A stretch of 64,000 nt of DNA from an uncultured SAR86 cluster bacterium (GTDB lineage Bacteria; Pseudomonadota; Gammaproteobacteria; Magnimaribacterales; D2472). This document shows positions 3,569-10,294 of the stretch, piece by piece (position 1 is the first letter of the stretch; the number at the start of each line of letters is the position of its first letter). The stretch covers positions 1 through 64,000 of the forward strand of contig CACLBJ010000004.1 in NCBI GenBank assembly GCA_902605165.1. The letters run 5' to 3'. The translations under genes were made by a program, and so were the position numbers. The notes below the pieces were generated by a model. The model was not told the DNA's origin. It worked only from the letters and a program-made list of their open reading frames with translations, and searched no databases.

Positions 3569-4966
3569 TTATTCTAAATTAATATCTTCATTTGGTAAGA
3601 ATTTTTTTAACTCTTCTAAAAAGTTATTTTGAATCTTTTCTAGCGATTCTTGACTATCTGCTTCAAATCTTAAGACGAGTTTAGGAGTCGTATTTGAAGC
3701 TCTTAAAAGAGCCCAACCATTTTCAAACGAAGCCCGAAGACCATCAGTGAAATCTTTTTCTCCATCAATTGATGCATTTTTAATAAAGTCATCAATTATT
3801 TTAAACTTACTCTCTTCAGGAACATCTATATTTAATTCTGGAGTTGAATAAGAAACAGGAAGGCTATCCAATAAATCATCTAGTGATGATCCTGTTTCAT
3901 TCATGATGTCTAAAAGTCTTATTGCAGAATAATGACCATCATCAAAACCATGCCAAATATCATTAAAGAAAATATGACCACTCATTTCACCTCCCAGTTC
4001 GGCATTATGTTTTTTTATATTATTTTTAATATGGAAATGTCCAGTAGGACTCATAAATGGAATTCCATCATTTTCCTTAATTATTTGAGGAAGAAAGTCT
4101 GAGCACTTAACATCAAAAATAATAGTTTTGCCTCCTCCATTTGAAAGTATTTTTTTTGAGAATAACATCATCATTTGATCGGGATAGATTAATCTTCCTG
4201 ATGAAGTTACTGCTCCAAGCCTATCTCCATCACCATCAAAAGCAACTCCAACATCTGCAGAGACCTCTTTTACCTTTTCAATAAGATCAACTAAATTCTT
4301 TTCTTTTCCTGGATCCGGATGATGATTTGGGAAACTTCCATCGACATCACAGAATATATCGATCACCTCGCAGCCGACTGCTCTTAATAAGTCGGGAGCA
4401 ATAATTCCAGCTGCACCATTTCCACAATCCACCACTACTTTAAGTTTTTTAAAATTAAAGCTACTTTTAACCTCAGTTATATATTCATCTCTTATATCTA
4501 AAAATCGATTTTTACCATTTGAGTTTTCCAAGGATATATCTGTTTTAGAAAGCTCAAATATTTCAGTACCAGATACTGGTTTATCATCTATAACAAGCTT
4601 AATTCCATTATAGTTTTTTGGATTGTGGCTCCCTGTAATCATAATTCCAGACTTAGAAGCTTGTTTTTTTGCTGCATAGTAGAGAAGAGGGCTTGTAGCA
4701 AGTCCTATATTTATAGTATTAATTCCATGCTTATTTAAAGATTCTTGGAGAGACTGCAAAAGAGATGGGCCAGATAATCTTCCGTCTCGAGCAATTACAA
4801 CTTCATCAACTGATTCTTTATGACATTTGTGAGCTATGGATTTAGCAATTTTCGCAATCGAATCTTCATTCAGCTCATCTGGGAAAATACCTCTTATGTC
4901 ATATTCCCTAAATATTGATTTTATAAGTTCTGGCATTTGCTTTTGATTTGATAGCTTGTTTGTCAT
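3569..4966 (-). CDS. algC: Phosphomannomutase/phosphoglucomutase AlgC
   Basis: Alpha-D-phosphohexomutase of 465 residues that interconverts hexose 1- and 6-phosphates for LPS and polysaccharide precursors. The phosphoserine loop TGSHNPKNYNG (Ser113), the metal-binding loop DGDGDR (244-249), the sugar-specificity loop GGEMSGH and the C-terminal phosphate loop RASNTTP appear in order. The ATG at 4966 is preceded by GAAGG at a suitable distance. Its promoter must lie in the 36 bp shared with divergent ilvE. ManB/CpsG is a possible alternative name, but the linkage to slmA favours AlgC. Confidence 0.9.
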   Translation of the reverse strand: MTNKLSNQKQMPELIKSIFREYDIRGIFPDELNEDSIAKIAKSIAHKCHKESVDEVVIARDGRLSGPSLLQSLQESLNKHGINTINIGLATSPLLYYAAKKQASKSGIMITGSHNPKNYNGIKLVIDDKPVSGTEIFELSKTDISLENSNGKNRFLDIRDEYITEVKSSFNFKKLKVVVDCGNGAAGIIAPDLLRAVGCEVIDIFCDVDGSFPNHHPDPGKEKNLVDLIEKVKEVSADVGVAFDGDGDRLGAVTSSGRLIYPDQMMMLFSKKILSNGGGKTIIFDVKCSDFLPQIIKENDGIPFMSPTGHFHIKNNIKKHNAELGGEMSGHIFFNDIWHGFDDGHYSAIRLLDIMNETGSSLDDLLDSLPVSYSTPELNIDVPEESKFKIIDDFIKNASIDGEKDFTDGLRASFENGWALLRASNTTPKLVLRFEADSQESLEKIQNNFLEELKKFLPNEDINLE

Positions 4967-4985
4967 AATACCTTCGATCTTATTA

Positions 4986-4993
4986 ATTATAAA
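4986..4993. promoter_or_regulatory. Overlapping divergent -10 elements between algC and ilvE
   Basis: In the 36-bp spacer the minus strand reads TATAAT (4986-4991, towards algC) and the plus strand TATAAA (4988-4993, towards ilvE), sharing the self-complementary TATA. No convincing -35 is visible on either side. With usual spacing the ilvE transcript would start about 3 nt before its GTG, and the algC leader would be about 13 nt. This is inference from sequence only. Confidence 0.35.
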
Positions 4994-5002
4994 TACAACA
5001 TA

Positions 5003-5926
5003 GTGTTTGATTTAACTTACAAAAATAAAAAGATTTGGAAAAATGGAGACCTAGTCTCATGGGATGAATGTAATGTTCATTCTTTGACGCATACCCTCCA
5101 TTATGGTGTTGGTGTTTTCGAGGGAGTGCGAGCATACAATACAGATAATGGACCAGCAATTTTCAGGGTAAAAGAGCATACAGAAAGACTTTTTGAGGCC
5201 GCAAAGATAGTAAATATAGATATTCCATATTCTACTGCAGAAATTATTGAAGCTCAAAAGACTGTGTTGATTAAAAATAATTTTGATGAGGCTTATATCA
5301 GACCAATTATTTACTTGGGAAATGAATCACTTGGGTTAAGAGCAGAAGATTTATCAGTAAATGTAATTATCGCTGCATGGGAATGGCCCTCTTATATGGA
5401 CCCTGAATCAAAACAGAAAGGAATTTCTGTTGTTAAGTCTCCATATAAACAATATAAGAACCCGAATTGGTCAAATTATAAGATAACTGGAACATATGTA
5501 AATTCAATTGTTGCTTTGCAAGACGCGGTTGCTAAAGGTGCTGATGAGGCATTAATTCTTGATAATGATGGTTATATTTCAGAGGGCAGTGGGGAAAATA
5601 TTTTCTTTTTAAAAGATGGCCTAATTATGACGCCAACAACAAAGAATTGTTTAAATGGAATAACTAGACAATCGGTTATAGAGATTGCAAAAGGTCTTGG
5701 TCATAAAGTTGAAGAGGGAGACTGGTCATACGAGCACATTATTGAATGTGATGAGGCATTTTTCACTGGTACAGCAGTAGAAGTTACCCCAATTACAAAG
5801 ATCGATGGAAAGATCATCTCTAATGGAACTGTTGGATCAATTACAAAAGAAATACAAACAAATTATGAGAATGCAGTCCTTGGAACTGACGATAACTCAA
5901 GAAACTGGCTGACATACATCGAATAA
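5003..5926 (+). CDS. ilvE: Branched-chain amino acid aminotransferase
   Basis: Fold-type IV PLP enzyme that transfers the amino group between glutamate and the keto acids of Leu, Ile and Val. The PLP lysine is K160 in NYKITGTYVNS. EALILDNDGYISEGSGENIF, the NGITR loop and the late EAFFTGTAVEVTPI motif are typical. Length 307 equals the E. coli enzyme. The start is a GTG with no Shine-Dalgarno and almost no room for a leader, so initiation may be leaderless. The next gene begins 4 bp after the stop. Confidence 0.95.
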   Translation: MFDLTYKNKKIWKNGDLVSWDECNVHSLTHTLHYGVGVFEGVRAYNTDNGPAIFRVKEHTERLFEAAKIVNIDIPYSTAEIIEAQKTVLIKNNFDEAYIRPIIYLGNESLGLRAEDLSVNVIIAAWEWPSYMDPESKQKGISVVKSPYKQYKNPNWSNYKITGTYVNSIVALQDAVAKGADEALILDNDGYISEGSGENIFFLKDGLIMTPTTKNCLNGITRQSVIEIAKGLGHKVEEGDWSYEHIIECDEAFFTGTAVEVTPITKIDGKIISNGTVGSITKEIQTNYENAVLGTDDNSRNWLTYIE

Positions 5927-5930
5927 TATT

Positions 5931-7178
5931 TTGCATAAATTAAAGATTGCACTACTAAGTTATAGGAGCGCACCTTTCTCGGGCGGCCAAGGTATTTTTG
6001 TGAAAGAACTTTCAAATGCTCTTTTAAAAAGGGGACATAAGATAGACATAATTTCAGGGCCTCCGATGCCAATTCTCGATCCAGGAATCAAATTAATAAA
6101 ATTGGAAGGTTTAAATTTATTTGAAACATTTAATTTTAGAGATAGAGCCTTTAAGCTTTGGAACAAAAAAAATAAAGACTCCCTTGATTATTATGATTTT
6201 TTTAAAACGCTAATAGGTGGTTTCCCAGAGATGTACTCTTTCGGAGAAAGGGTGAAGAAATATCTCTCACAAAAAAAAGATTATGACATCGTTATAGATA
6301 ATCAGTCTTTAAGTTCAGGGATGTTGGAAATTCAAAAAAATTATCCTTTTGTTGAAATAATTCATCATCCTATAACGAAAGATTTTAAATATGATCTTAT
6401 TTATTCAAATGGCTATATTCAAAGATTTTTTAAAAAAAGATGGTATTCATTTCTTAAAATGAACAAAAAAGTAGCACCTAAACTTAAAAAGATTATTACA
6501 GTCTCTTTAAACTCAAAGAAAGATATTGCACGCGATTTTAAGATTGATCCAAAGAGAATCAATGTTATTCCTAATGGACTAGATCTTAAAGTTTTTAAGA
6601 AAAATGATGGATTGGAGAGAGAAAAATTTAAAATTGTAACTGTGGCAAGTGCTGACATTCCTTTAAAAGGTTTAGACACCACCCTTAAAGCTATTTCATT
6701 AATTTTAGATAAGTATCCAAAGACAAAACTTTCAGTTGTTGGAAATCCCAGAGAGAACGGCCACACGGAGAGGGTTATTAGACAACTCAATCTCACCAAT
6801 CATATTTCCTTTAAAACAAATCTTTCAAAAGAAGAAGTTGCATATGAATATCAATCTAGCTCTCTTGCAATTATTAGCTCTTTGTATGAAGGTTTTGGTT
6901 TTCCTGCTGCTGAGGCTATGGCATGTGGAACACCAATTATTTCATCGAATTCCTCTGCACTTCCAGAAATTGTTCAAGACTTTGGACAGTTATATGAGCC
7001 TGGTAATTCAGTTGCCCTGAGAGATTGCATTGAAAATTTTTATCTAAACAGATCTTTTTATAATGATCTAGCTAAAAAGGGATCTCTATATGCAAATGAA
7101 ACTTTTAATTGGCAGAAAATTGCATTAGATTACGAAGAACAATTTTTAGAGACAATAGAAAAATTTAATTCATGCTAA
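5931..7178 (+). CDS. GT4-family glycosyltransferase
   Basis: GT-B fold glycosyltransferase of 415 residues. The N-terminal domain has a glycine-rich acceptor-side loop FSGGQGIFVKELSNAL. The C-terminal domain has the family 4 signature EGFGFPAAEAMACG with the two glutamates at about 320 and 327. It would transfer a sugar from a nucleotide donor; donor and acceptor cannot be read. The start is the TTG at 5931, the only sensible codon after the ilvE stop. The 3' end overlaps the following methyltransferase by 7 bp, so the two are translationally coupled. It is first in an accessory run with a methyltransferase and a toroid protein. Confidence 0.85.
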   Translation: MHKLKIALLSYRSAPFSGGQGIFVKELSNALLKRGHKIDIISGPPMPILDPGIKLIKLEGLNLFETFNFRDRAFKLWNKKNKDSLDYYDFFKTLIGGFPEMYSFGERVKKYLSQKKDYDIVIDNQSLSSGMLEIQKNYPFVEIIHHPITKDFKYDLIYSNGYIQRFFKKRWYSFLKMNKKVAPKLKKIITVSLNSKKDIARDFKIDPKRINVIPNGLDLKVFKKNDGLEREKFKIVTVASADIPLKGLDTTLKAISLILDKYPKTKLSVVGNPRENGHTERVIRQLNLTNHISFKTNLSKEEVAYEYQSSSLAIISSLYEGFGFPAAEAMACGTPIISSNSSALPEIVQDFGQLYEPGNSVALRDCIENFYLNRSFYNDLAKKGSLYANETFNWQKIALDYEEQFLETIEKFNSC

Positions 7179-7876
7179 CATTTAATTTTAATAACATTAG
7201 TCCAAAAAAAGATTCCTTTATGCTTGATGCTGGATGCGGTCCAGGTAGACATGTTTTTGGTTTCATGGACCAGTTTCCTAATATCACTTGTGTTGGAGTT
7301 GATTTAGACTCTGATTCGCTTCAAGAAGGGAAAACAAACTTAACTTTATTTAGTTCGATTTCCAATAAAGAATCAACATTCCTTCAGGGCTCTGTATATA
7401 ACTTACCCTTTAGTGATAATGCTTTCGAGACAATAATTTGCTCTGAGGTTTTAGAGCATGTTGCTGATGTCGATGCAACTCTAAAGGAGTTAACAAGACT
7501 TCTTAAGCCTGGTGGCAATTTGCTTATAAGCGTTCCATCTTATTTTCCCGAAAAGATTTGTTGGCTACTCTCAAAAGATTATCAAAATATGCCAGGTGGC
7601 CATGTAAGAATATTTAGAAAAAGTGTGCTTCAAGAGAAGGTTGAAGAAAAGGGTTATAACTTAGAGAGAACTGAAAAGTATCATGCTTTGCATAGTCCAT
7701 ATTGGTGGCTTAGATGTCTATTTTGGTCATCACAAGACAGTAATTTTCTTGTGAAAATTTATAAAAAGATATTAGAGATACAAATTTTGAAAAATCCCAT
7801 GATGTTAAGAGTCTTGGATAATATTCTTAATCCATTTCTAGGGAAAAGTACTTCTTTTTATTTTAAGAAGTTATGA
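7172..7876 (+). CDS. Class I SAM-dependent methyltransferase (Methyltransf_11 type)
   Basis: The 234-residue product starts directly with the Rossmann SAM-binding motif DAGCGPGRH (residues 19-27), followed by an acidic strand end GVDLDS and the motif ICSEVLEHV with LLKPGGNLLISVPS, all typical of small-molecule methyltransferases. The substrate is unknown. The ATG at 7172 lies inside the 3' end of the glycosyltransferase and the stop overlaps the next start as ATGA, which places all three in one operon. Confidence 0.85.
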   Translation: MLTFNFNNISPKKDSFMLDAGCGPGRHVFGFMDQFPNITCVGVDLDSDSLQEGKTNLTLFSSISNKESTFLQGSVYNLPFSDNAFETIICSEVLEHVADVDATLKELTRLLKPGGNLLISVPSYFPEKICWLLSKDYQNMPGGHVRIFRKSVLQEKVEEKGYNLERTEKYHALHSPYWWLRCLFWSSQDSNFLVKIYKKILEIQILKNPMMLRVLDNILNPFLGKSTSFYFKKL

Positions 7877-8841
7877 AAATGATCAAACATCAATTAGTTC
7901 CTGCTAAGGATTGGATAATTGAGAATCAAAATAAGAGTGGATCAATAAACTGGGACCACAGAGGCAAATGTGATCCTTGGGATCACTGTGAGTGCTTAAT
8001 AGCTCTTGCAATATATGAAGAGTGGGATGCATTTAATAAGGGCATTGAATGGTTCTTCAAAAATTTAAATGCTGAAGGAGAAATCGCACCTGAATTTATC
8101 AATGAAAAAGTTACTAAGGACCATTTCGAAAGCCATCATGCGTCATATGTTTTTCTTCCTCTGTACCAAAAATTTTTAATTGATAATAATATTGATTACT
8201 TACTTAAGTACAAAAAAGAAATTCAGGCTATATATAATTCAACCTTAGCCTTTGCAGATTCAGATGGATTCTTATTTTGGGCAAAAGATAAAGATGGATT
8301 TTCTGATAATTCTCTAATAACCGCTTCATGTTCAGTTCATATCTCATTAAAAACATATGAAAACATTGCTGATATTTTAGATTTAGATTCTAACCATGAA
8401 AAAATACTGTTGAATCAAGAAAAAATTAATTCAAAGAAATTTGATCGTGATGGTATTAGCAGGAAAAGGTTTTCTATGGATAACTATTATCCTTTTTTAT
8501 GTGGTATCGGAGACGATGGACTTATTAGTAAGGCTATGAGTAATTTTTACAAAGAAGAATTAGGAATTAAATGTGTTATTGAGGAACCATGGGTAACTTT
8601 TGCGGAATCATCAGAATTTATAATTAGCTTGGTAAGAATGAACAGAAAAGAAGATGCTAAAAAGATTTTAAAAGAAATAATGAGATTCCAAGACAACAGG
8701 GGAATATTCCCAACTGGCTATCAATATAAATTGGATATTTTATGGCCTGATGAGTTTTCAACTTGGACCAATGCTGCAGTTATCATTGCTGCAGATTGTG
8801 TATTTGGGATCTCACAAAAAAGAAATGTATTCTTAGCCTAG
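7873..8841 (+). CDS. Alpha/alpha-toroid protein, prenyltransferase/terpene-cyclase-like
   Basis: A 322-residue soluble protein of unknown function. Near the N-terminus it has GSINWDHRGKCDPWDHCE (Asp34-Pro-Trp-x-His-x-Glu40), and near the C-terminus WPDEFSTWTNAAVIIAAD (from Trp291), with repeated helical pairs between. From memory, proteins with this DPWxHxE and late TWTxAAV pattern are annotated 'prenyltransferase' in actinobacteria and share the alpha/alpha-barrel of squalene cyclases and protein prenyltransferases; neither activity is shown. The gene overlaps the upstream methyltransferase by 4 bp and the convergent methyltransferase by 9 bp. Confidence 0.6.
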   Translation: MKMIKHQLVPAKDWIIENQNKSGSINWDHRGKCDPWDHCECLIALAIYEEWDAFNKGIEWFFKNLNAEGEIAPEFINEKVTKDHFESHHASYVFLPLYQKFLIDNNIDYLLKYKKEIQAIYNSTLAFADSDGFLFWAKDKDGFSDNSLITASCSVHISLKTYENIADILDLDSNHEKILLNQEKINSKKFDRDGISRKRFSMDNYYPFLCGIGDDGLISKAMSNFYKEELGIKCVIEEPWVTFAESSEFIISLVRMNRKEDAKKILKEIMRFQDNRGIFPTGYQYKLDILWPDEFSTWTNAAVIIAADCVFGISQKRNVFLA

Positions 8842-9447
8842 CTTTCTAAGAGCAACTAAACTGTGTACTCTATCTATTAGCTCAAAGTCTTCAACTAATG
8901 CTTTTTCATAAATTTCTTTAGGGGCTTGGCCTCCCTCTAATTCTGAGTCATAAATATCATGAATTGCTAAGATACCACCAGTCGCTATTTTATCTCTCCA
9001 TGAAAAATAATCATTTCTTGCTGACTCAAAGGTGTGACTTCCATCAATAAAAACAAGGCCTAAATCATCTTCAATTCTTTTAGATGCTTCCACAGAATTA
9101 TCAATAACTGGAATAACAGTATCAATGAGATCAAATTTTTTTATATTTCTCATAAAAAGAGGATATGTATCAACTCTTTTATTTTCATAATCATAGATCT
9201 CTTCATCAAAATACTCTTCACCAAATTGCTGCTCTTCCGATCCTCTATGATGATCAATGGAAAATAACTTTGTATCATTTTCTTTACAAGCTAAACCTAT
9301 ATAGCAAGCAGATTTGCCGCAATAGGAGCCAATCTCGACAGCAAATCTCTCTCTGCATTCTCTAGAAGAGAGTTCATAAAGGTATTTTCCCTCGTCCGGG
9401 TGAAGAAAACCTTTTATATTATTAAACATATCTAATTTAGCGCTCAT
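8833..9447 (-). CDS. Class I SAM-dependent methyltransferase (Methyltransf_24/CmcI-like)
   Basis: About 204 residues with a SAM-binding loop FAVEIGSYCGKSACYIG, an acidic SIDHHRGS, and LVFIDGSHTFESARNDYFSW with LAIHDIYDSE, the metal-dependent O-methyltransferase-like pattern of Methyltransf_24. The frame is open upstream to a possible start at 9534, but that would overlap the lpxL-like gene by 98 bp. The ATG at 9447 (MSAKLDMF) reduces this to 11 bp and has an AAGAAAG-type ribosome site. The 3' end overlaps the toroid gene on the opposite strand by 9 bp. It may act in the same pathway as 5931-8841. Confidence 0.75.
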   Translation of the reverse strand: MSAKLDMFNNIKGFLHPDEGKYLYELSSRECRERFAVEIGSYCGKSACYIGLACKENDTKLFSIDHHRGSEEQQFGEEYFDEEIYDYENKRVDTYPLFMRNIKKFDLIDTVIPVIDNSVEASKRIEDDLGLVFIDGSHTFESARNDYFSWRDKIATGGILAIHDIYDSELEGGQAPKEIYEKALVEDFELIDRVHSLVALRKLG

Positions 9448-10294
9448 AAAAACTTTCTTTTCCCATAGTTGATTTGAATCTTCTGTGTTGCCATAAATAT
9501 TCTGATGGCTTCTCTCTAATTCTAGCCTCGACATGTGAAGAGATATCTTGAATCATCGATTTTGAATCTGAGATTTTTATCTCTTCAACAGAAAGAATTA
9601 GTTTGTCTGATTCATAGTATGAATTTAAAAATAAAACCTTGCATTTAGTTGCATCTACAATTTTGATAGGAGCATTTGTAGTAGCTGTTTTAATACCAAA
9701 AAAATCTATATTCGAACTATTCTTCAAGCCATAATCTTGATCAATGGCATAAAGAACAGTTTTATTTTTCTTGAGCCATTTAATGAATGTAATTGGTGAA
9801 TTTTTATCAGCGAGAGCATTAAGCCCTTTCAATCTTCCCATGCTTTGTACTTTCTGCATGAAGGCTGAGTTATGCACTCTTTCTACCCCGTAAAGCTCAC
9901 AATGCATTCCGAGTATTCTTGAGTCCAGTTCTAAGTGATGAGAGTGTTTAAAAATTAGAAGGTTGCCCTTAGTTGCAGTAAGCTTATTTAAACCAAATAT
10001 TTCATATTTAATTAAAGAATTTATCTTTGAATCATTCCAAAACCACGCTTTACCTGTATCAAATATTCCATGAACCATCGACTTGAGATTTTTATTAAAA
10101 AGATTTCTTTTTTCTTGCTCATTCAAGTTAGGAAACGCAGCATCAATATTTTTTCTACTGAAAATATTTCTTTTAAGATTAGGGTTTTTTAAAAGGGTGA
10201 ATAAAATATTTGCTAAAACATTTTGAAAGTTTATTGGGAAAGCAACAATTAGCTTCCAAAAAAATATGACTATCTTTTGATTGATAAATTTCAT
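9437..10294 (-). CDS. lpxL: LpxL/HtrB-family lipid A late acyltransferase
   Basis: A 285-residue inner-membrane acyltransferase with an N-terminal hydrophobic segment (about 8-35). The catalytic HX4D motif is HHLELD (His119 to Asp124), followed by a YAIDQDYG box, and the C-terminus has the characteristic PSEYLWQHRRFK. The family adds secondary acyl chains to Kdo-lipid A. The divergent neighbour is waaA (Kdo transferase), which makes its usual substrate. Which acyl position is served (LpxL or LpxM type) cannot be read, so the symbol is a family-level call. Confidence 0.8.
   Translation of the reverse strand: MKFINQKIVIFFWKLIVAFPINFQNVLANILFTLLKNPNLKRNIFSRKNIDAAFPNLNEQEKRNLFNKNLKSMVHGIFDTGKAWFWNDSKINSLIKYEIFGLNKLTATKGNLLIFKHSHHLELDSRILGMHCELYGVERVHNSAFMQKVQSMGRLKGLNALADKNSPITFIKWLKKNKTVLYAIDQDYGLKNSSNIDFFGIKTATTNAPIKIVDATKCKVLFLNSYYESDKLILSVEEIKISDSKSMIQDISSHVEARIREKPSEYLWQHRRFKSTMGKESFYER

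What the first reader, a model, noticed from the sequence alone, without database searches (positions are those of the whole stretch)
5931..9447. Accessory cluster of GT4, methyltransferase, toroid protein and second methyltransferase
Four genes with no housekeeping role sit between ilvE and lpxL. The toroid protein has DPWDHCE and a late WPDEFSTWTNAAV pattern that I recall from actinobacterial proteins annotated as prenyltransferases, also near glycosyltransferases and methyltransferases. If the same set recurs in distant phyla it is probably a transferred small pathway for a methylated glycoconjugate or lipid-linked compound of unknown structure.
Basis: partly seen in the sequence, partly recalled or inferred. 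Interest (0 to 1): 0.6.

Follow-up and report, generated by a model that had tools for sequence, protein, structure and literature searches.

The report
Methylmannose-type polysaccharide genes in SAR86
The four genes are the counterpart of the mycobacterial operon that builds and recycles a methylated sugar polymer, and here they are a near-universal, fixed-order part of the tiny genomes of SAR86, one of the commonest bacterial groups in the surface ocean, where this pathway does not seem to have been described.

Summary
The toroid protein is a homologue of MmpH, the methylmannose-polysaccharide (MMP) endomannosidase of Mycolicibacterium (phmmer E 9e-27; AlphaFold model TM 0.91 to 7qsj, next match about 16 orders weaker; catalytic Asp and Glu kept). 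The GT4 matches ManT (9e-76), the minus-strand methyltransferase MeT1 (6e-40), and the other methyltransferase is by position and similarity the putative 3-O-methyltransferase pMeT3. This is the complete MMP cluster, in the same gene order and orientation as in Actinobacteria. It is core to the SAR86 order (38 of 39 good genomes) and patchy in Alpha- and Gammaproteobacteria, delta-type bacteria and one haloarchaeon. Likely function: a cytosolic 3-O-/1-O-methylated alpha-1,4-hexan replicated by self-recycling (MmpH cuts, ManT extends, MeT3 methylates, MeT1 caps). The sugar is uncertain: GDP-mannose pyrophosphorylase is missing from most SAR86 genomes, including near-complete ones, whereas UDP-glucose synthase is present. 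Within SAR86 the mmpH-meT1 pair has been exchanged between families separately from manT-meT3. Product and physiological role are untested.

The parts
5931..7178 (+). manT homologue: GT4 retaining glycosyltransferase, predicted alpha-(1->4)-hexosyltransferase (chain elongation)
   Evidence: phmmer vs 7qsg (M. hassiacum ManT; PDB title 'D-inositol 3-phosphate glycosyltransferase') E 9e-76, next PDB hit 6e-18; ManT catalytic residues H142, K240, E313, E321 = H145, K246, E320, E328, invariant wherever aligned in 112 homologues
7172..7876 (+). pmeT3 homologue: class I SAM methyltransferase, predicted 3-O-methyltransferase
   Evidence: Methyltransf_11; tblastn vs the Nonomuraea gene in the same position: 35% over 237 aa, E 3e-55; always between manT and mmpH
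7873..8841 (+). mmpH homologue: (alpha/alpha)6-barrel endo-glycosidase (recycling enzyme)
   Evidence: 7qsj phmmer E 9e-27; AlphaFold pLDDT 92, Foldseek TM 0.91, E 3e-24; D47, D50, E262, E265 = D34, D37, E245, E248; no Pfam or NCBIfam family
8833..9447 (-). meT1 homologue: predicted 1-O-methyltransferase capping the reducing end (ORF runs to 9534; start at 9447 more likely)
   Evidence: 6g7d/6g80/6h40 (MeT1) phmmer E 6e-40; Methyltransf_24; alignment A4 with invariant HHxGSEE, FIDGxH, HD motifs
3569..4966 (-). phosphoglucomutase/phosphomannomutase (PgmG-like), conserved neighbour, possible source of the hexose-1-phosphate
   Evidence: NCBIfam NF046027 440 bits, below its 600-bit cut-off; conserved position in all 20 family loci
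9437..10294 (-). lpxL/htrB lipid A acyltransferase, conserved flank (lipid A-core locus)
   Evidence: PF03279, TIGR02207; adjacent in all 20 family loci

Best explanation
A complete MMP-type cluster. Shown: homologues of all four enzymes of the mycobacterial methylmannose-polysaccharide pathway, in the same order and relative orientation, with the catalytic residues of ManT and MmpH kept. Inferred: the cell makes a short cytosolic alpha-(1->4)-linked hexose polymer, 3-O-methylated along the chain and methyl-capped at the reducing end. MmpH cuts a finished chain into primers, ManT adds hexoses, MeT3 methylates O-3, and MeT1 re-caps fragments with a free reducing end, so that old polymer seeds new. 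Role, inferred from the proposed acyl-CoA sequestration by mycobacterial MMP: buffering long-chain acyl-CoA in a cell that lives largely on fatty-acid oxidation. The hexose may be mannose (as in mycobacteria) or glucose; I leave this open.
For: Sequence matches to the three solved MMP enzymes, each far ahead of the next PDB hit. Fold match TM 0.91 to MmpH. Catalytic residues Asp47/Glu262 kept in at least 116 of 117 MmpH sequences, and the ManT residues in all aligned ManT sequences. Nonomuraea carries the four genes in the same order and orientation. 67 of 80 named relatives in Alpha-, Gammaproteobacteria, Actinomycetota and others carry manT+ meT3+ mmpH+ meT1-, and 75 of 80 the first three. 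In 8 of 9 carriers tested without a local meT1 (or whose contig ends there), meT1 lies elsewhere in the genome. Core in SAR86. Purifying selection. Mechanism from PMC9883506. O-antigen ligase/polymerase family Wzy_C in only 3 of 39 good SAR86 genomes, so an exported O-antigen is unlikely.
Against: No product has been isolated from SAR86. GMP/ManC (TIGR01479) is missing from most SAR86 genomes and all tested genomes of the window genus; near-complete G060 and G480 have only GalU, MurU-like and GlmU-length enzymes in PF00483. The guanine-contact residue D293 of ManT is K300 here and varies outside Actinobacteria. The window's MmpH belongs to a divergent subtype with N101 and F102 of the substrate subsite both His. 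pMeT3 is only a putative 3-O-methyltransferase even in mycobacteria. The cluster in an archaeon (Natrinema, no MeT1) fits poorly with a role tied only to fatty acids.
Confidence: 0.8

Rival explanations
1. Same machine, different sugar: in SAR86 the polymer is an alpha-1,4-glucan methylated at O-3, built from UDP-glucose (PgmG-like mutase next door plus GalU), i.e. a methylglucose analogue of MMP.
For: GalU-like enzymes of about 290-300 aa are present in the good-quality SAR86 genomes compared (the four representatives profiled are GalU), ManC in a minority of the order and not in the window genus; ManT D293 not conserved; a phosphoglucomutase/phosphomannomutase is a fixed neighbour.
Against: ManT is 37% identical to the Nonomuraea enzyme, beside which an ORF that reads as GDP-mannose 4,6-dehydratase lies; many other carriers do have ManC; the MurU-like enzyme or another nucleotidyltransferase family could make GDP-mannose; some SAR86 do have ManC.
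Confidence: 0.3
2. The genes make or trim a methylated glycan of the LPS core, since in SAR86 they sit in a lipid A-core locus (lpxL, kdtA; hldE, hldD, waaF in another family).
For: Fixed neighbours lpxL and kdtA in the own family; kdtA in 12 of 31 long gammaproteobacterial loci, hldE/hldD/waaF in loci of a sister family.
Against: The same four genes stand without these LPS genes in Alphaproteobacteria, and in Actinobacteria, which have no LPS; Wzy_C is rare in SAR86; no flippase or ligase in the cluster.
Confidence: 0.12
3. The toroid is a prenyltransferase or terpene-cyclase-like enzyme and the cluster makes a methylated lipid-linked glycan.
Against: No prenyltransferase or cyclase family in Pfam or NCBIfam; best structure is MmpH and the following hits are glycosidases and sugar epimerases; glycosidase catalytic residues kept.
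Confidence: 0.02

Closest known systems
Mycobacterial MMP cluster (ManT, pMeT3, MmpH, MeT1; Mycolicibacterium hassiacum MHAS_04402-04405; PMC9883506)
   Same: All four protein families, gene order, MeT1 last; key catalytic residues of ManT and MmpH
   Different: Gammaproteobacterial order with LPS and a ~1 Mb genome; GDP-mannose supply not shown; divergent MmpH subtype; locus within lipid A-core genes
Actinobacterial MMP-like clusters outside mycobacteria (Nonomuraea, Actinomadura, Nocardia, Streptomyces)
   Same: manT+ meT3+ mmpH+ then meT1-
   Different: meT1 up to several kb away in Streptomyces and Nocardia
Mycobacterial methylglucose lipopolysaccharide (MGLP)
   Same: Cytosolic polymethylated polysaccharide proposed to sequester acyl chains (PMC9883506)
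   Different: Different genes (own knowledge: glucosylglycerate primer); 6-O-methylglucose
GH15/GH125 (alpha/alpha)6 glycosidases
   Same: Fold and inverting-type active site of the MmpH relatives (PMC9883506)
   Different: Only about 8-13% identity to MmpH, different subsites; GH125 members are exo-acting

Membership tests
MMP biosynthesis cluster | MmpH-type endomannosidase with catalytic Asp47/Asp50 and Glu262 | tested here: met
   D34, D37, E245; TM 0.91
MMP biosynthesis cluster | ManT GT4 with H142, K240, E313, E321 | tested here: met
MMP biosynthesis cluster | MeT1 1-O-methyltransferase | tested here: met
   homology, E 6e-40 to 6g7d; the active-site paper is not held, so residues were not checked against it
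MMP biosynthesis cluster | pMeT3 methyltransferase between manT and mmpH | tested here: met
MMP biosynthesis cluster | Four genes in conserved arrangement | tested here: met
   67 of 80 relatives with the window's order and orientation
MMP biosynthesis cluster | GDP-mannose donor available (and guanine contact D293 in ManT) | tested here: inconclusive
   no ManC in the window genus and few in the order; no other PF00483 candidate except MurU-like; D293 is K300; other nucleotidyltransferase families were not searched
MMP biosynthesis cluster | Product: alpha-1,4-linked 3-O-methylmannose, 11-14 units, methyl aglycon | not testable with these tools
   needs chemistry
Prenyltransferase / terpene-cyclase toroids | Match to a prenyltransferase or cyclase profile or fold | tested here: not met
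Exported O-antigen pathway | O-antigen ligase/polymerase (Wzy_C) in carrier genomes | tested here: not met
   0 in own genome, 3 of 39 good SAR86 genomes

The most novel reading that the evidence does not exclude
SAR86 uses the MMP machine with a different donor, making a self-replicating O-methylated alpha-1,4-glucan (not mannan) that buffers acyl-CoA for its fatty-acid-oxidising metabolism and on lysis feeds the methyl-sugar pool of marine dissolved organic matter; the mmpH-meT1 cassette is exchanged between lineages as a specificity module.
Probability: 0.2. Interest if true: 0.8.

Novelty: new member of a known kind. Interest (0 to 1): 0.6.

Why it matters
MMP has been studied as an actinobacterial, mainly mycobacterial, product. 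A four-gene version kept in nearly every genome of SAR86, whose streamlined cells make up about 2-6% of the global ocean microbial community (PMC11582366), suggests an important role unrelated to mycolic-acid envelopes and makes the old question of what polymethylated polysaccharides do testable in very different cells: a Gram-negative fatty-acid oxidiser, an alphaproteobacterium and perhaps an archaeon without fatty-acid membrane lipids. It also offers one candidate biological source for methyl sugars reported in marine dissolved organic matter (reference titles seen; the link is inference).

Tried and rejected
Prenyltransferase/cyclase reading: rejected by profiles and fold. O-antigen reading: Wzy_C nearly absent. 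'Accessory island': rejected by order-wide conservation. Phage or plasmid origin: no phage match; the only 'plasmid' match is the 11.85 Mb Nonomuraea replicon. Donor question: the ManC search weakened the mannose reading; I could not settle it. The MeT1 structure paper was not held. A PHROG 'DNA methyltransferase' match of MeT1 (E 4e-14) is taken as generic SAM-fold similarity. One AU test (MeT3, window type + f2) did not finish.

Full report
Observation. The three plus-strand genes overlap by 4-7 bases; the fourth converges on them. Both quoted motifs are in the toroid protein.

Identity of each gene. The toroid protein has no Pfam or NCBIfam match but one PDB match: 7qsj, methylmannose-polysaccharide hydrolase MmpH of M. 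hassiacum, E 9e-27. An AlphaFold model from 30 relatives has pLDDT 92 and pTM 0.92; Foldseek puts MmpH first with TM 0.91 and E 3e-24, the next hits (glycosidases, sugar epimerases) being at E 1.5e-8 or weaker. MmpH residues D47, W49, D50, T163, M215, Y219, E262, E265 and W315 map to D34, W36, D37, T150, M202, Y206, E245, E248 and W298; N101 and F102 are both His here. Asp47 and Glu262 are kept in at least 116 of 117 relatives (one Asp47 is Glu, one sequence is truncated before Glu262); position 50 is Asn in the Alphaproteobacteria. The GT4 matches ManT (7qsg) at E 9e-76 against 6e-18 for the next, with H142, K240, E313 and E321 all kept. The minus-strand methyltransferase matches MeT1 (6g7d) at 6e-40. 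The other methyltransferase matches the Nonomuraea gene at the same position at 3e-55, as pMeT3 should.

Same cluster in other phyla. Maranha et al. 2023 (PMC9883506) define the MMP cluster as ManT, pMeT3, MmpH and MeT1 and surveyed mycobacteria and related actinobacteria. In Nonomuraea the order is manT+ pmeT3+ mmpH+ ... meT1-, as in the window. 67 of 80 have all four genes in the window's order and orientation, 75 have manT-meT3-mmpH. In eight of nine carriers tested that lack meT1 in the fetched locus it lies elsewhere in the genome; Natrinema has none. The full-text library holds no paper linking this pathway to SAR86, and the two papers with 'methylmannose' and 'proteobacteria' do not, by title, concern such a cluster; subscription literature is not covered.

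Core, not accessory. Within the window's family 95 of 107 genomes, and all 19 good ones, have mmpH; within the order 38 of 39 good genomes and 17 of 18 genera; in class- and phylum-wide samples it is rare elsewhere. The block pgm-ilvE-manT-meT3-mmpH-meT1-lpxL-kdtA is invariant in 20 loci from the family. dN/dS among the closest genus mates is 0.03-0.05 for meT3 and 0.10-0.15 for mmpH.

History. In the MmpH, ManT and MeT3 trees the SAR86 sequences lie together on one side, apart from the other phyla, though f2 is long-branched in ManT and MeT3 and deep MeT3 branches are weak; MeT1 is less clear. The trees are unrooted, so direction of transfer is open. Inside SAR86 there is a clear conflict: mmpH and meT1 of the window genus and of two further genera of its family group with family f2 (support 100/100 and 100/98), and keeping the window's family together is rejected (AU p 4e-9 and 0.006); manT and meT3 keep it together, and joining window type with f2 is rejected for manT (p 0.0096; the meT3 test did not finish). 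The convergent mmpH-meT1 pair was therefore exchanged as a unit, apart from manT-meT3. Functionally this pairs the enzyme that makes free reducing ends with the one that caps them (inference).

Mechanism. By homology, mature polymer is cut by MmpH into primers, ManT adds hexoses, MeT3 methylates O-3 and MeT1 caps O-1, giving partially conservative replication (PMC9883506; shown in mycobacteria, inferred here, and pMeT3 is only putative there too). Cytosolic location is inferred: no export or ligation genes in the cluster, and Wzy_C in only 3 of 39 good SAR86 genomes. Role: mycobacterial MMP is proposed to sequester acyl-CoA, its loss slows growth at 15 C, and SAR86 depends on beta-oxidation (PMC11582366), so acyl-CoA buffering is my favoured but untested role.

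The open point: which sugar. Full-length ManC is in a minority of SAR86 genomes and not in the window genus. Near-complete G060 and G480 have only three PF00483 enzymes: GalU and MurU-like (profiled) and a GlmU-length one. The window's own genome (83% complete) shows RmlA and a MurU-like enzyme by profile plus a GlmU-length ORF. ManT's guanine contact D293 is Lys here and varies outside Actinobacteria. Many other gammaproteobacterial carriers do have ManC, while the Actinobacteria tested lack this model too, so its absence alone is weak. Mannose is the default by homology, glucose a serious alternative.

Context. In the window's family the cluster is locked into a lipid A-core locus; kdtA also lies near it in 12 of 31 long gammaproteobacterial loci, but no such link exists in the Alphaproteobacteria or Actinobacteria examined, so LPS is a lineage-specific setting rather than part of the pathway.

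Verdict. A known kind of pathway in an unexpected and ecologically important host, core there, with a testable uncertainty over its donor sugar.

Noticed in passing
L140 (Natrinema gari JCM 14663) 4850-7999: A haloarchaeon carries manT-meT3-mmpH beside an ORF that looks like an IPP isomerase, with no meT1 found in the genome; an MMP-type polymer in an organism without fatty-acid membrane lipids would challenge the fatty-acid role.
   Followed up: partly
window 7873-9447; L040, L041, L042, L067, L071: The mmpH-meT1 pair of the window's genus and two other genera of its family is of the type found in SAR86 family f2, unlike manT-meT3: exchange of half an operon within the order.
   Followed up: yes
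G000:C1:135130-135471 and equivalents (L159, L182, L183, L188, L193): SAR86 genomes keep a MurU-like nucleotidyltransferase beside an ORF resembling an AmgK-type kinase and a ribulose-phosphate epimerase; its scores fall below the MurU cut-off, so its true substrate is open.
   Followed up: partly
L022 (NZ_LT559118.1): The 11.85 Mb Nonomuraea gerenzanensis replicon is catalogued as a plasmid in PLSDB, though by size it looks like the chromosome; no genes are annotated in the stretch examined.
   Followed up: no
L037 (G039:C2:57500-70500): manT, ilvE and the phosphomutase are each broken into two or three frames in this genome, which looks like assembly error rather than decay because neighbours are broken too.
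   Followed up: no
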